Part shown: in pieces, positions 38,585 through 52,697 of the stretch
Position numbering within the stretch: the first letter of the stretch is position 1
Layout: each line of letters begins with the position of its first letter
Assembly (NCBI GenBank): GCA_003138815.1
Contig: PLHD01000039.1
Coordinates: 1 to 62,410 of the forward strand
Reading direction: 5' to 3'
Source of the DNA: Acidimicrobiaceae bacterium
GTDB lineage: Bacteria; Actinomycetota; Acidimicrobiia; Acidimicrobiales; RAAP-2
DNA: 62,410 nt
The notes under the pieces: model-generated
Seen by the model: only the letters and a program-made list of their open reading frames with translations
Told to the model about the DNA's origin: nothing
Databases searched by the model: none
Program-made: the position numbers and the translations under genes

Positions 38585-40005
38585 AGAGCGCCTTTCAGAT
38601 CGTCGACGAGGTCCGCCGCGGCGCCACCACGGCCGCGGCCGAGCTCGCGACGTGCCTCGACGCTGTTCGCGCGCGCAACGAGGAGCTGAATGTCTTTCTC
38701 TACGTCGACGAAGAGGGCGCCGCGGCGGCCGCGTCGCGCGTGGACGGGATTCTCGCGAGCGGCGGCGATGGCGGTGCGCTGGCCGGAGTGCCCATCGCCA
38801 TCAAGGACAACATGTGCCAGCGGGGCATCCCGACGACCTGCTCGTCCAAGATCCTCGAGGGCTGGCGCCCGCCCTACAACGCCACGGTCCTCGACCGGTT
38901 GCTCGCGGCCGGGGCGGTCCCGGTGGGCAAGACGAACCTCGACGAGTTCGCCATGGGTTCCTCGACGGAGAACTCGGCCTTCGGCCCCACGCGCAATCCG
39001 CTCGATCCCTCGCGCGTGCCAGGCGGCTCGTCGGGCGGCTCGGCGGCCGCGGTGGCGGCGGGCATGACGCCCCTGGCCCTCGGCAGCGACACCGGCGGAT
39101 CGATCCGCCAGCCCGCCGCGTTGTGCGGCCTGGTGGGAGTGAAGCCCACCTACGGCCTGGTCTCTCGCTACGGACTGATCGCCTTCGCCAGTTCGCTCGA
39201 CCAGATCGGCCCGTTCGCCAAGACCGTCAGGGACGCGGCGATGCTCCTCGAGGTGATTGCCGGCCACGACCCGATGGACTCGACGTCGCTGCCCGAGCAG
39301 TCGCCGTCGCTCGTCGCCCACGTGGGTGACGGCGTGGCGGGCAAGCGCGTGGGAGTGGTGCGCGAGCTGATCGAGGGCGCCGACCAGGACGTGGTGGACG
39401 CAGTGGACCGCGCGACCCGGGTGCTGGCCGACGCCGGTGCGACGCTCGTCGAGCTCTCGATCCCCGAGCTGCGCCTGGGCCTCAGCGCGTACTACCTCAT
39501 CGCACCGGCCGAGGCGTCGAGCAACCTCGCGCGCTACGATGGCGTGCGCTTCGGGCTGCGGGTGAACGCTGAGGACGTCTCGGCGATGAACGAGGCGACC
39601 CGGACCGCCGGCTTCGGCGCCGAGGTCAAGCGCCGGATCATGCTCGGCACGTACGCGCTGTCGGCCGGCTACTACGACGCCTACTACGGCCAGGCGCTCA
39701 AGGTCCGCACGCAGATGATCGACGCCTTCCGGCGCGCCTACCGCGAGGTCGATCTGCTCATCGGCGCCACGGCGCCCTCGGTGGCCTTCGAGTTCGGATC
39801 CAAGACGAGCAACCCCATGTCGATGTACCTGTCGGACGTCTTCACGATCCCCACCAACCTGGCGGGCGAGGCGGCGCTCTCGGTGCCCTTCGGCACCGGC
39901 GAGGCGGGTCTGCCGGTCGGCGTCCAGCTGCTGGGACCGGGACGCAGCGAGGGCCTGCTCTTGGCGGGCGCGCGCGTGCTCGAGATCGCCGACGGCCGAC
40001 CATGA
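38581..40005 (+). CDS. gatA: Aspartyl/glutamyl-tRNA amidotransferase subunit A
   Basis: A 474-aa amidase-signature subunit that releases ammonia from glutamine. The Ser-cisSer-Lys triad is visible: Lys in [10 protein letters not shown] (about residue 75), cis-Ser in [11 protein letters not shown] (about 149) and the nucleophile Ser in [10 protein letters not shown] (about 174). GTG start overlapping gatC (GTGA); its stop overlaps gatB (ATGA). Confidence 0.95.
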
Positions 40006-48693: not shown

Positions 48694-49728
48694 ATGACCA
48701 CGATGTACTACGAAAAAGACGCGAACCCTGAGCTGCTGAAGGGCAAGAAGATCGCAATCCTGGGCTACGGCTCGCAGGGTCACGCCCACGCGCTGAACCT
48801 CCACGACAGCGGTTACGACGTACGCGTGGGTCTGCGTCCCGAGTCGGCGTCGATCCTGAAGGCCGAGGACGCCGGACTTCGCGTGCTCAGCATCGCCGAC
48901 GCGTGCGCCGAGGCGGACGTCATCATGGTGCTGGTGCCCGATACCGAGCAGAAGCGCACCTACGACGCCGACATCGCGCCGCACCTCACGGCGGGCAAGT
49001 GCCTGCTGTTCGCGCACGGCTTCAACATCCGCTTCAATCTCATCACGCCCCCGGCGGACGTGGACGTGGCCATGGTCGCTCCCAAGGGCCCGGGCCACCT
49101 CGTGCGGCGCACGTACATCGAAGGTGGCGGGGTGCCGGCGCTCATCGCCGTACACCAGGACGCCACGGGCCACGCGCACGACATCGCGCTGGCCTACGCC
49201 CACGGAATCGGCGCCACTCGCGCCGGCGTGCTCGAGACCACGTTCACCGAGGAGACCGAGACGGACCTCTTCGGCGAGCAGGCCGTGCTCTGCGGCGGCG
49301 TGTCGGCGCTGGTGAAGGCCGGCTACGAGACCCTCGTGGAGGCGGGCTATCAGCCCGAGAGCGCGTACTTCGAGTGCCTGCACGAGCTGAAGCTGATCGT
49401 GGACCTCATGTACGAGGAGGGAATCACCGGCATGCGATTCAGCGTCTCGGACACCGCCGAGTACGGCGACCTCACCCGTGGACCGCGCATCATCACCGAC
49501 ACGGTCAAGGCCGAGATGAAGAAGATCCTGACCGAGATTCAGGACGGCACGTTCGCGGCCGAATGGGTGAGGGAAAACGAGATCGGCCGCCCGCGCTACC
49601 GCGAGCTGCGCGAGAGCGGAAAGAAGCACCCCATCGAGGACATCGGCAAGAAGCTTCGCGCCATGATGCCCTTCGTGTCGGCCGGTAAGCAGAAGGTCGG
49701 CGACGTCTCGGGCGGCGACACGGACTAG
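48694..49728 (+). CDS. ilvC: Ketol-acid reductoisomerase (class I)
   Basis: A 344-aa enzyme that isomerises and reduces acetolactate. The cofactor loop is [19 protein letters not shown] (about residues 23-41), followed by the VGLRPES segment that sets NAD(P) preference. The conserved metal-binding block [19 protein letters not shown] is near residue 128, and [14 protein letters not shown] near 190 carries Mg-ligand acids. The length fits class I KARI. ATG with GAAAGAAAG upstream. Confidence 0.96.
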
Positions 49729-49844: not shown

Positions 49845-51986
49845 ATGGAGTTGACGATCATCGGTGCCGGCGCGATCGGCGGCACCATTGGTGCTCACAT
49901 GGCCAGGGGCGGCCATGACGTCGTCCTGTGCGACGCCGACACCGATCACGTTGCTGCGATCAATCGCGACGGGCTGACCATAGAAGGACCGGTCGAGAAC
50001 TTCAACGTCCGCGTGAAGGCCATCACCCCCGATCAGCTGCCCGCGCGGACCGAGCACCTCGCCGTCGCGGTCAAGAGCCACCACACCCAGGCGGCGGCGG
50101 ATCTGATGCGCGGTCGGATCGCTCCTGGGGGGTACTGCGTGAGCTTTCAGAACGGCTTCACCGCCGACATCCTCGCCGAGGCCGTCGGTCGCGACAACCT
50201 GATTGTCAGCTTCGTGAACTTCGGAGCCGACGTGGTGGGTCCCGGGCGGATCATGCAGGGCAACGTCGGAACGTTCCGCGTCGGCGAGCCCTTCGCCAAC
50301 GTGGTCACCACTAGGGTGGCCGAGCTGGCGGCGGCCCTGCCCTACGCCGTGGCGACGGACAACATCATGGGATTCCTCTGGGGCAAGGAGGCCTACGGGG
50401 CGATGCTCTACGCGGGCGCGGTCTCGGACCTGTCGATCGCCGACTCGTTGGGGCATCCGCGTTACCGGACGCTGATGATGGCAATCGCGTCGGAGGTCCT
50501 GGCCCAGTCGCCGGTGACGCCCGAGGGCTTCGATGGATTCGAGCCTGACGATCTTGAAGGCTCGCTGGACCGTCTGGTCGCCTTCAACCGCGCCAGCGCG
50601 AAGTCCCACAGCGGCATCTACCAGGACCTGATGGTGCGAAAGCGCAAGACCGAGGTCGATGACGTGCTGCGCGGCCTGAAGGGGCCGCTGACGACGTACG
50701 TGGGCGAGCTGATACATGCCATCGAGCGCGGCGAGCGGACGTGCGAGGTCGCGAACCTCGACCTGCTGTGCGCGTACGAGCGCACCGAGCGCCTAGGACG
50801 CAAGCTCAACGCCGTGGTGCACACGCTCCCGGCGCCCCTTCGCCGTCAGGACGGTCCGCTGCACGGCGTCGCCGTCGCCGTGAAGGACCTGGTCGACGTG
50901 GAGGGCGTTCCACGCGGCAACGGCAATCCCAACGCCATGGCCGGCCCACCGTCGTCGAGCGACGCTCCGGTCGTCGCATCGCTGCGCGAAGCTGGCGCCG
51001 ACGTCTTCGCGGTCACCTCGCTGCTCGAGTACGCGGCCGGGGCGCTGCACCCCGACGTTCCCGAGGCCATGAACCCCCATGGTCCCTCGCGCACCGCCGG
51101 CGGGTCGAGCGGCGGCTCAGCGGCGCTGGTGGGGGTGGGCGCGTGCGAGGTGGCAATCGGTACCGATACGGGCGGATCCATCAGGATCCCCGCGCACTAC
51201 TGCGGCATCGTCGGCTTCAAGCCGAGCTACGGCTCCATCGACCTGGCAGGCGTGCAGCCGCTCTCCCCGTCGCTCGACCACGTGGGGCTGCTCGCCAAGG
51301 ACGTCGCGATCACCGAGCGGGTCTTCTCGGCGATGACCGGTTCCGCCGTGCACGACGCCCCGCACCGCCGGCTGCGCATCGGGGTCGTCTCGGGCCAACT
51401 CGACGATCCGATCAGCTCCGACGATGTCCGCGGGGCTCTCGCCGTGGCCGTCGGGCGGATTTCCGCCGGGGCGGACATCGTTCAGGTGGACGGCGGCGCG
51501 CTCGACGAGATGCGCTCGACGTTCGAGGTCATCATCTTGTACGAAGCGTGGCGGGTGCACCGCGAACAGGTCGAGCGCGACCCGGGCCACTACGGCCCCG
51601 AGACCTTGCGCCTCTTCCTCGCGGGCTCGAAGATCACGCGCGAGGCCTACGACGTGGCGATGGTCACGCGCACGCGCGTCGCGTCGTCGATGGAAGCCCT
51701 GTACGAGGGCCTCGACGCCTTGCTGACGCCCGCGGCACCCTACGTGGCCCCGGCCACGACCCCGCCGATCGACACGCCCGACGGCGAGGTCGAGGCGTAC
51801 TTCACGAGCCCCTTCAACCTGAGCGGGGACCCCGCCCTGGTGCTGCCGTGCGGATTCGGCGGGGAGGGCCTGCCGATCGGCCTGCAGCTTTCGGCGCCAC
51901 GCGGCGCCGACATGGACCTGCTCGCCGTCGCGCGAGTGATCGAAGGGCTTCTGGACGTCGATCATCGTGCGCCCGTCGTCACCTGA
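49845..51986 (+). CDS. Fusion: ketopantoate-reductase-like domain + amidase-signature domain (713 aa)
   Basis: Residues 1-330 are a 2-dehydropantoate 2-reductase (PanE/ApbA-like) protein: Rossmann loop TIIGAGAIGGTIGAHMARGG, then the Lys/Glu-containing helical domain with KSHSGIYQDLMVRKRKTEVDD. Residues about 336-705 are an amidase-signature enzyme with an intact triad: Lys in HGVAVAVKDLVD, Ser in [11 protein letters not shown], Ser in DTGGSIRIPAHYC. The amidase part lacks roughly the first 60-70 residues normally found before its Lys motif, so the junction replaces its N-terminus. The reading frame is open throughout. The neighbouring gene fragments suggest deletion-born fusion, but a functional two-domain enzyme is possible. 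ATG at 49845 has AGGGA upstream. Confidence 0.8.
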   Translation: MELTIIGAGAIGGTIGAHMARGGHDVVLCDADTDHVAAINRDGLTIEGPVENFNVRVKAITPDQLPARTEHLAVAVKSHHTQAAADLMRGRIAPGGYCVSFQNGFTADILAEAVGRDNLIVSFVNFGADVVGPGRIMQGNVGTFRVGEPFANVVTTRVAELAAALPYAVATDNIMGFLWGKEAYGAMLYAGAVSDLSIADSLGHPRYRTLMMAIASEVLAQSPVTPEGFDGFEPDDLEGSLDRLVAFNRASAKSHSGIYQDLMVRKRKTEVDDVLRGLKGPLTTYVGELIHAIERGERTCEVANLDLLCAYERTERLGRKLNAVVHTLPAPLRRQDGPLHGVAVAVKDLVDVEGVPRGNGNPNAMAGPPSSSDAPVVASLREAGADVFAVTSLLEYAAGALHPDVPEAMNPHGPSRTAGGSSGGSAALVGVGACEVAIGTDTGGSIRIPAHYCGIVGFKPSYGSIDLAGVQPLSPSLDHVGLLAKDVAITERVFSAMTGSAVHDAPHRRLRIGVVSGQLDDPISSDDVRGALAVAVGRISAGADIVQVDGGALDEMRSTFEVIILYEAWRVHREQVERDPGHYGPETLRLFLAGSKITREAYDVAMVTRTRVASSMEALYEGLDALLTPAAPYVAPATTPPIDTPDGEVEAYFTSPFNLSGDPALVLPCGFGGEGLPIGLQLSAPRGADMDLLAVARVIEGLLDVDHRAPVVT

Positions 51987-51989
51987 CCA

Positions 51990-52332
51990 ATCAGCCGGAC
52001 GTCGGTGACTCGGCGCTGCCCGGGGCCGGCAACTACTGCGACCTGCGCTACGGCGGCGCGGCGTGCACGGGACGCGGCGAGATGAGCATGCGCGCCGTCG
52101 GAGCGCGCTCGGTCGTCGAGGCGCTCGGCCGTGGCGAGGACCCCGCCGAGGCGTGTCGCTCGATGCTCGCCGACGCGGCCACGCTGCTCGACGCCTTCCG
52201 GGCCGAGTTGCGCACCCTCTGCCTGACACCCGACGGGCGCCACGGCGCCGCGGCCGGGCAGGCGGGTTCGACCTACAACGTGATGACCGCATCCAGCGCC
52301 GCACCGAGGTGTTCGCGAGGGTCGTGCTATGA
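51990..52332 (+). pseudogene. Fragment of an isoaspartyl peptidase/asparaginase-family (Ntn) gene
   Basis: In the frame starting near 51990 the translation reads DVGDSALPGAGNYCDLRYGG then ACTGRGEMSMRAVGARSVVE and TPDGRHGAAAGQAGSTYNVM, which matches the C-terminal part of the asparaginase-2/N-acetylglucosaminyl-asparaginase family. The N-terminal half with the catalytic Thr is missing. Near 52305-52312 the frame changes by one base: SSAAP in one frame continues as EVFARVVL and a stop in the next. That stop overlaps the start of the M55 fragment (ATGA), an operon arrangement left from the intact state. Confidence 0.75.
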
Positions 52333-52697
52333 AGATCCTCATCTCGTCGGACATGGAGGGCACGGTGGGCGTCGTCGACTGGGACCAGGTCACCGCGGGC
52401 GGTCACCAGTTTGACTACTACACCGGGCTGCTGACCAAGGAGATCATCGCCGCCATCGAAGGGGCCATGCGCGCGGGCGCCACGGAGTTCCTGGTGAACG
52501 ACTCCCACTCGAAGATGGCGAACCTTCGCCCCGACGCCCTCTCGGGTTCGGCGCGCTACCTCTCGGGTCGCTTCAAGCCCATGTACATGATGCAAGGCCC
52601 ACGTCGGGTTCCTCACGGCGCCCCGCCCACGCCGCTGATGACCTTCGGCCCTTGCGAACGGCTCGCGCGACGCACAGAATTATTTTGTGACGGCTAA
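52329..52697 (+). pseudogene. 3'-truncated M55 family D-aminopeptidase (DppA-like)
   Basis: The first 88 residues (to about 52592) match M55 peptidases: MKILISSDMEGTVGVVDW carries the metal-binding Asp/Glu, then AGATEFLVNDSHSKMANLRP and GRFKPMYMMQG. After that the sequence no longer resembles the family and stops at residue 122, while intact members are about 270 aa and need later His and Glu ligands. The gene is therefore broken. The break coincides with an AT-rich stretch and the start of the pncB segment. Confidence 0.8.

What the first reader, a model, noticed from the sequence alone, without database searches (positions are those of the whole stretch)
49845..51986. In-frame fusion of a ketopantoate-reductase-like domain with an amidase
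A single 713-codon frame joins a complete PanE-like domain to an amidase-signature domain with an intact Ser-cisSer-Lys triad but without its usual N-terminal 60-70 residues. I know no standard enzyme with this order. It may be a new bifunctional catabolic enzyme (reduce an oxo acid, hydrolyse an amide) or a deletion product.
Basis: partly seen in the sequence, partly recalled or inferred. Interest (0 to 1): 0.6.

Follow-up and report, generated by a model that had tools for sequence, protein, structure and literature searches.

The report
Conserved dehydrogenase–amidase fusion enzyme
Two enzymes that some bacteria make as separate members of a gene cluster for breaking down peptide-like compounds have here become one protein, and the same joined gene occurs in related and distant bacteria, so it looks like a real two-part enzyme of still unknown substrate and not a sequencing accident.

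Summary
The 713-codon frame at 49845-51986 is real: a complete ketopantoate-reductase-like (KPR) domain joined to an amidase-signature domain with intact Lys-Ser-Ser triad. It is not a deletion product or assembly artefact. I found it in 18 genomes: 17 in one uninterrupted frame, one broken by a 10-N scaffold gap; they include an isolate (Streptosporangium subroseum) and a bin named Dormiibacterota. In separate trees of the halves the 17 fused rows form one clade (100/100). The KPR half is nearest to stand-alone KPRs found, in 11 of 12 regions examined, behind a creatininase-like gene in a cluster with a peptide ABC transporter, GntR, an SDR and usually an M20 dipeptidase; 3 of the 12 also hold a related separate amidase. 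Orthologues of cluster genes flank the fusion. Best reading: a bifunctional enzyme of peptide/amide catabolism, cleaving an amide and interconverting a 2-hydroxy/2-oxo acid. Substrate and direction are inferred. PanE's substrate-contacting Asn180 and Asn184 are replaced, so it is probably no ketopantoate reductase. In the window's genome the neighbouring Asparaginase_2 and M55 genes are truncated, yet the fusion evolves at its relatives' rate. My searches of open-licence papers listed none describing it.

The parts
49845..51986 (+). fused KPR-like dehydrogenase / amidase-signature gene, 713 codons plus stop
   Evidence: 17 of 18 fused genomes have it in one uninterrupted frame
49845..50777 (+). 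KPR-like domain, residues 1-311: GxGxxG; N103, K181, S256, E270 at PanE catalytic/substrate positions; G185 and Y189 where E. coli PanE has Asn180 and Asn184
   Evidence: HMM of 12 stand-alone KPRs matches residues 2-311 (columns 5-338 of 344), 308.8 bits; residue counts
50703..50846 (+). junction, residues 287-334: last KPR helices 'GELIHAIERGERTCEVANLDLL' plus 23 residues that stand in for the amidase N-terminus; 16 of 48 columns invariant in 17 fused rows
   Evidence: the wider junction alignment A2 (residues 250-365, 11 rows) has 80% mean column identity
50847..51983 (+). amidase-signature core, residues 335-713; Lys347, Ser421 (cis-Ser by recalled numbering), Ser445
   Evidence: HMM of 6 stand-alone amidases 355.2 bits from residue 335; triad invariant
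52001..52285 (+). remnant of an Asparaginase_2 (Ntn isoaspartyl-peptidase-like) gene, only residues 207-301 of 316, 80% identical to the L047 copy
   Evidence: a near full-length copy lies near the fusion in 12 of 17 stretches
52329..52697 (+). remnant of an M55 D-aminopeptidase gene, only residues 1-90 of 274 (52329-52598), then unrelated codons
   Evidence: near full-length in 7 of 17 stretches
48694..49728 (+). ilvC (ketol-acid reductoisomerase), upstream syntenic anchor shared with G007 and G714, not part of the enzyme

Best explanation
A bifunctional catabolic enzyme made by one fusion of two genes of a peptide/amide-utilisation cluster. Shown: one protein with both sets of catalytic positions, found as one frame in 17 genomes (an 18th is broken by Ns), one clade in both half-trees, kept by purifying selection; its nearest stand-alone KPRs sit in a cluster with a peptide ABC transporter, GntR regulator, creatininase-like amidohydrolase, SDR and (in 8 of 12 regions) M20 dipeptidase, in 3 of 12 with a separate related amidase. 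Inferred: the amidase domain hydrolyses an amide or isopeptide bond of an imported peptide-like compound by the Ser-cisSer-Lys mechanism, and the KPR domain converts the 2-hydroxy acid so released into the 2-oxo acid with a nicotinamide cofactor (or first reduces a 2-oxo amide that is then cleaved), fusion keeping two consecutive steps on one chain. Order, direction and substrate are not shown.
For: Fused frame in relatives. 17 fused rows one clade in both half-trees, 100/100. Separate KPR and amidase genes in one cluster of Deinococcus deserti and in one region of D. peraridilitoris and Rhizobium sp. BG4. Orthologues of cluster genes near the fusion: SDR 50-63%, creatininase 47-51%, M20 45-49%, ABC permeases/ATPases 46-52% identical to D. 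deserti. Catalytic positions invariant in both halves. NG86 dN/dS window vs G007: KPR 0.08, junction 0.10, amidase 0.19. Asp at position 30, the end of the second strand, in 17 of 17 fused and 12 of 12 split KPRs; by a recalled rule this favours NAD(H), which would fit oxidation.
Against: In 9 of 12 split-KPR regions no related amidase was found within the fetched flanks (up to 14 kb) by tblastn, so the activities are not obligatorily paired. No activity, substrate or structure was determined; the AlphaFold model is poor in the amidase half (mean pLDDT 65.5, pTM 0.48). The fusion is rare: 7 of 99 genus genomes; in the phylum sample of 396 only the own genome matches along the junction. In the window's genome the cluster has decayed. 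D30 is Asp in 8 of 10 other KPR-like proteins too. One unfused KPR of the same order (L099) also has the Gly/Phe pair and its place relative to fused and split rows is unresolved, so the split-cluster KPRs are not shown to be the sole closest relatives. Only 3 of the 6 stand-alone amidases used are known to lie near a KPR.
Confidence: 0.66

Rival explanations
1. Only one half works as a catalyst; the other is a structural or regulatory (for example cofactor-sensing) domain.
For: No activity data; the amidase half varies more than the KPR half (mean majority identity 0.675 against 0.799) and has higher dN/dS.
Against: Catalytic positions of both halves invariant in 17 of 17 rows; both halves under purifying selection.
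Confidence: 0.18
2. In this genome the gene is a relic of a decayed cluster and no longer useful, although the family is functional elsewhere.
For: Neighbouring Asparaginase_2 and M55 genes truncated; no creatininase or DUF885 orthologue found in the window's genome at E 1e-10.
Against: Frame intact, catalytic residues kept; 51 residues changed on the window lineage against 51 on the G007 lineage with G022 as outgroup, G007 having the neighbours. The truncations could also be assembly faults, and the genome is 96% complete, not whole.
Confidence: 0.12
3. Pantothenate degradation: the amidase is a pantothenate hydrolase and the KPR domain oxidises the pantoate released to ketopantoate.
For: Chemistry fits both families: pantothenate is the amide of a 2-hydroxy acid and KPR interconverts pantoate and ketopantoate (established knowledge); the protein behind pantothenase activity is called currently unknown in PMC10393543 (passage). 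The stand-alone D. deserti KPR passes the PanE model TIGR00745.
Against: Asn180 and Asn184 of E. coli PanE are Gly (29 of 29) and aromatic (29 of 29) in fused plus split proteins; the neighbours named by Pfam are mostly peptidases, amidohydrolases and oxidoreductases.
Confidence: 0.05
4. Recent deletion product or assembly chimera of two separate genes.
For: Neighbouring genes in the same window really are truncated.
Against: Same one-frame fusion in 16 other genomes incl. an isolate; the one split copy (G034 = L048) is caused by 10 Ns of a scaffold gap.
Confidence: 0.01

Closest known systems
2-dehydropantoate 2-reductase (PanE/ApbA, KPR) family
   Same: Rossmann domain with GxGxxG; residues aligned with Asn98, Lys176, Ser244, Glu256 of E. 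coli PanE kept; profile matches along the whole domain
   Different: TIGR00745 score 108.3, below its cut-off 141.35; Asn180 -> Gly, Asn184 -> Tyr/Phe/Trp; fused to an amidase; no pantothenate gene seen among the neighbours named
Amidase signature family (PF01425; malonamidase E2, 'probable amidase' 2dc0)
   Same: Lys-Ser-Ser triad, GTDTGGS(I/V)R motif, whole core, 228.5 bits against cut-off 27
   Different: Own N-terminal ~70 columns not recognisable, replaced by the KPR C-terminus plus 23 residues; none of the 25 NCBIfam models listed (of 44 matched) reaches its cut-off, best PRK08310 237.3 against 391
Deinococcus deserti cluster NC_012528 96.6-112.5 kb with separate '2-dehydropantoate 2-reductase' and 'amidase' genes
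   Same: Both enzymes related (39% and 41% identity to the two halves) and in one cluster; SDR, creatininase, M20, AstE-like and ABC orthologues shared with fused loci
   Different: Two genes, not adjacent to each other (RraA, M32 and SDR genes between them)

Membership tests
PanE/KPR (ketopantoate reductase) | GxGxxG dinucleotide motif | tested here: met
   G7, G9, G12 in 17 of 17 fused rows
PanE/KPR (ketopantoate reductase) | catalytic Lys176, Asn98, Glu256 (roles from passages of PMC3478992) | tested here: met
   K181, N103, E270 invariant in 17 fused, 12 split, 10 other rows
PanE/KPR (ketopantoate reductase) | substrate-contacting Asn180 and Asn184 (passages of PMC3478992 and PMC10127515) | tested here: not met
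   Gly in 29 of 29 and aromatic in 29 of 29 fused plus split rows; Asn in 8 and 5 of 10 other KPR-like rows; one of the 10, L099, also has Gly and Phe
PanE/KPR (ketopantoate reductase) | NCBIfam TIGR00745 cut-off | tested here: not met
   108.3 against 141.35; the stand-alone D. deserti KPR passes with 158.2
PanE/KPR (ketopantoate reductase) | reduces ketopantoate | not testable with these tools
   needs assay
Amidase signature family | Ser-cisSer-Lys triad in the GGSS/GTDTGGS motifs | tested here: met
   K347, S421, S422, S445 invariant in 17 fused, 6 stand-alone relatives, 17 other rows; which Ser is the cis-Ser is recalled
Amidase signature family | Pfam PF01425 gathering score | tested here: met
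   228.5 against 27
Amidase signature family | N-terminal helices | tested here: inconclusive
   not recognised by an HMM of 6 relatives (confident from column 70), weak envelope from residue 288; phmmer aligns malonamidase E2 from its residue 9
Fused KPR-amidase family (defined here) | same order and junction in one frame | tested here: met
   17 of 18 genomes; the 18th is interrupted by 10 Ns
Creatininase-KPR-SDR catabolic cluster | neighbouring creatininase, SDR, M20, peptide ABC genes | tested here: inconclusive
   met in several relatives, most completely in Streptosporangium (L129); in the window's genome creatininase and DUF885 orthologues were not found; SDR, M20 and ABC were looked for only within the window

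The most novel reading that the evidence does not exclude
The fusion is the core two-step enzyme of an undescribed, patchily spread pathway that imports a peptide-like amide of a 2-hydroxy acid, cleaves it and oxidises the acid on one polypeptide, with a junction in which one helical segment ends the dehydrogenase and begins the amidase. In its boldest form the substrate is pantothenate or a pantetheine-like compound, and this gene is a pantothenase joined to a pantoate dehydrogenase.
Probability: 0.3. Interest if true: 0.6.

Novelty: new variant of a known kind. Interest (0 to 1): 0.42.

Why it matters
A fusion of two members of one gene cluster is a strong hint that the two enzymes act together. 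This one ties a subfamily annotated '2-dehydropantoate 2-reductase' to amide cleavage, suggests that the annotation is wrong for that subfamily, and makes an apparently undescribed catabolic cluster (seen here in Deinococcus, Rhizobium, roseobacters, Acidimicrobiaceae-named MAGs and Streptosporangium) testable through one enzyme.

Tried and rejected
Deletion or assembly artefact: rejected by relatives and by the N gap in G034. Malonamidase-like specificity: considered because malonamidase E2 aligns well, set aside because the usual amidase GTDTGGSIRIPA motif is present; the special Arg of malonamidase is recalled, not tested. Pantothenate degradation: kept only as an unlikely rival. An aldolase next to the KPR as a sign of a 4-hydroxy-2-oxo acid: RraA was found in 5 of the 12 split regions and HpcH/HpaI beside one fused gene, too patchy to use. 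Structure: the AlphaFold model from 11 fused rows is good only for most of the KPR half, so no fold search was run. NAD preference from D30 rests on a recalled rule. A short operator-like DNA pattern in the window gave no match.

Limits. The amidase outgroups are 17 of the 32 unfused amidase loci that brought in. The KPR outgroups are 10 rows: I tried 11 of the 27 unfused loci plus L008, and two (L115, L116) gave no hit in the script and dropped out. Five of the 6 stand-alone amidases were taken from the best BLAST hits (H1, H2, H5, H7, H12), which favours their closeness to the fusion; one (D. peraridilitoris) came by its place in a cluster. H1, H7 and H12 are not known to lie near a KPR. The 12 split regions are 12 of the 94 plasmid records, picked from the 20 best. 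The class, order and phylum samples were drawn evenly from larger groups, and only part of the first-look candidates was scored, so the rarity figures are lower bounds. The gene calls are home-made.

Full report
Observation. Pfam finds ApbA at residues 4-148 and Amidase at 333-693. The window is one contig (C8) of a 2.53 Mb, 96% complete genome in 75 contigs; besides the fused protein it gave matches to several unfused amidases and two unfused KPR-like proteins.

Is the fusion real? Yes. Among 61 genomes (own and relatives), G007 (79% identity) and G022 (74%) have the whole protein in one frame, and G034 has it in two pieces. A scan of species genomes found 11 loci at 58-68% identity, among them the isolate Streptosporangium subroseum and bins named Acidimicrobiaceae, Actinomycetes and Candidatus Dormiibacterota. 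Further searches added G714, G720 (same contig and position as L047) and G742, G316 and G902. The total is 18 distinct genomes, 17 with one uninterrupted frame. It is uncommon: 7 of 99 genomes of the genus, own included. In the class sample 31 of 296 genomes matched the junction query, but only two (own, G316) along its whole length at high identity. In the phylum sample 4 of 396 matched, only the own genome along the whole junction. In the order sample 35 of 248 matched the KPR half, three of them (own, G316, G902) at 62-100% identity and fused. Each of the 10 genomes behind L038-L047 gave one match to the junction.

Anatomy. Eleven fused proteins align with 74% mean column identity. Positions aligned with E. 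coli PanE Asn98, Lys176, Ser244 and Glu256 (N103, K181, S256, E270) and the amidase triad (K347, S421, S445) are invariant in 17 of 17 rows; the roles of the PanE residues come from passages of PMC3478992 and PMC10127515, and the placing rests on the alignment to solved KPRs. Asn180 is replaced by Gly and Asn184 by Tyr, Phe or Trp in all 17 fused and all 12 stand-alone KPRs of the regions described below, whereas 8 and 5 of 10 other KPR-like proteins of the order keep Asn there. One of those ten, L099, has Gly and Phe as well, and may belong to the same subfamily. An HMM of 12 stand-alone KPRs covers residues 2-311; an HMM of 6 stand-alone amidases is confident from residue 335, its column 70 of 447, with an envelope from 288. 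So the dehydrogenase is complete to near its last residue and the amidase's own start is replaced. In the alignment the segment 'GELIHAIERGERTCEVANLDLL' matches the end of stand-alone KPRs ('DLIHEIEDGRRPLSRENLDDL') and, more weakly, lies where stand-alone amidases have their start. That one segment serves both domains is an inference; the structure prediction is too weak at the amidase to test it (mean pLDDT 65.5).

The separate counterparts. In the plasmid collection no record has one place covering at least 80% of the fused query (0 of 1317 matching records). It does have stand-alone amidases up to 41% identical to the second half and 94 records with KPRs up to 43% identical to the first. 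In Deinococcus deserti both lie in one cluster: ABC transporter (5 genes), GntR, creatininase, KPR, RraA, M32, SDR, amidase, SDR, M20 dipeptidase, M14/AstE. I examined 12 regions around such KPRs, picked from the 20 best of the 94 records. By tblastn 11 of 12 have a creatininase-like gene, directly before the KPR; Roseomonas marmotae has none. An amidase related to the fused one was found in 3 of 12: D. deserti, D. peraridilitoris and Rhizobium sp. BG4; in BG4 it lies about 17 kb from the KPR with other genes, ABC transporter genes among them, between. In trees of each half (39 KPR rows, 40 amidase rows) the 17 fused rows are one clade with support 100/100. In the KPR tree the 12 split rows form a group (92/93) near the fused clade; whether they or L099 stand closest is unresolved. 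In the amidase tree the 6 stand-alone relatives join the fused clade with 96/91, but five of the six were chosen as best BLAST hits and only three are known to lie near a KPR. One fusion event is enough to explain the data.

Neighbourhood of the fusion. In 17 stretches holding a fused gene (window included; G902 was fetched later and not included) tblastn found near full-length Asparaginase_2 in 12, the cluster SDR at 50% or more in 11, DUF885 in 10 (some cut), M55 in 7, M20 in 5, creatininase in 4 and peptide ABC genes in 4. Several stretches are short contigs, so these are lower bounds. Streptosporangium has ABC transporter, Asparaginase_2, M55, creatininase, SDR, M20, M19, ADH and HpcH/HpaI genes around the fusion within 20 kb. 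Names of the families rest on Pfam for representatives and on the annotation of the Deinococcus record.

The window's own copy. G007 and G714 read ilvC, fusion, Asparaginase_2, M55. The window has ilvC, fusion, then only residues 207-301 of Asparaginase_2 and 1-90 of M55, and no creatininase or DUF885 orthologue was found in its genome at E 1e-10. Creatininase gave no match in 5 of the 9 fused genomes searched (own, G720, G742, G316, G902), so that gene is not a constant partner. The window's fusion is intact and under purifying selection (NG86 dN/dS 0.08, 0.10 and 0.19 for KPR, junction and amidase against G007; synonymous changes near saturation), and 51 residues changed on its lineage against 51 on that of G007 with G022 as outgroup.

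What it does. The neighbours suggest import and cutting of peptide-like compounds: the D. deserti binding protein is nearest GsiB, far below its cut-off, and its M20 enzyme passes the dipeptidase model PRK08201. The fusion adds amide cleavage and a 2-oxo/2-hydroxy acid redox step. I infer two consecutive steps on one imported amide or isopeptide. Substrate, cofactor and direction are open.

Literature. Searches for a KPR-amidase fusion and for the cluster listed no paper that names either, as far as titles and abstract beginnings show; of the listed papers two were checked by passages and do not concern it (PMC2615216, PMC6957218), the others were seen as listings only. The library holds open-licence papers only.

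Verdict. A real, conserved, apparently undescribed fusion of two known families, most likely bifunctional: new variant of a known kind, moderate interest.

Noticed in passing
window 52001-52285 and 52329-52697: Truncated remnants of an Asparaginase_2 gene and an M55 D-aminopeptidase gene directly after the fusion; near full-length in relatives G007 and G714. Real decay or an assembly fault.
   Followed up: partly
L134 (Deinococcus deserti), L135, L137-L145: A cluster of peptide ABC transporter, GntR, creatininase-like, KPR-like and SDR genes, often with M20, M32, RraA or isoaspartyl peptidase genes, in Deinococcus, Rhizobium and roseobacters; my paper searches listed no description of it.
   Followed up: partly
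L134 11793-12821 and relatives: Stand-alone cluster KPRs carry the name 2-dehydropantoate 2-reductase although the positions of PanE Asn180 and Asn184 are Gly and Phe in 12 of 12; the name may be wrong for this subfamily.
   Followed up: partly
window 38665-40002: A second, unfused amidase-signature gene in the same window (37% to the D. peraridilitoris amidase).
   Followed up: no
L043 4398-5126: The M19 dipeptidase gene is matched only by two end pieces (residues 1-43 and 242-408), unlike in L042, L045 and L046.
   Followed up: no
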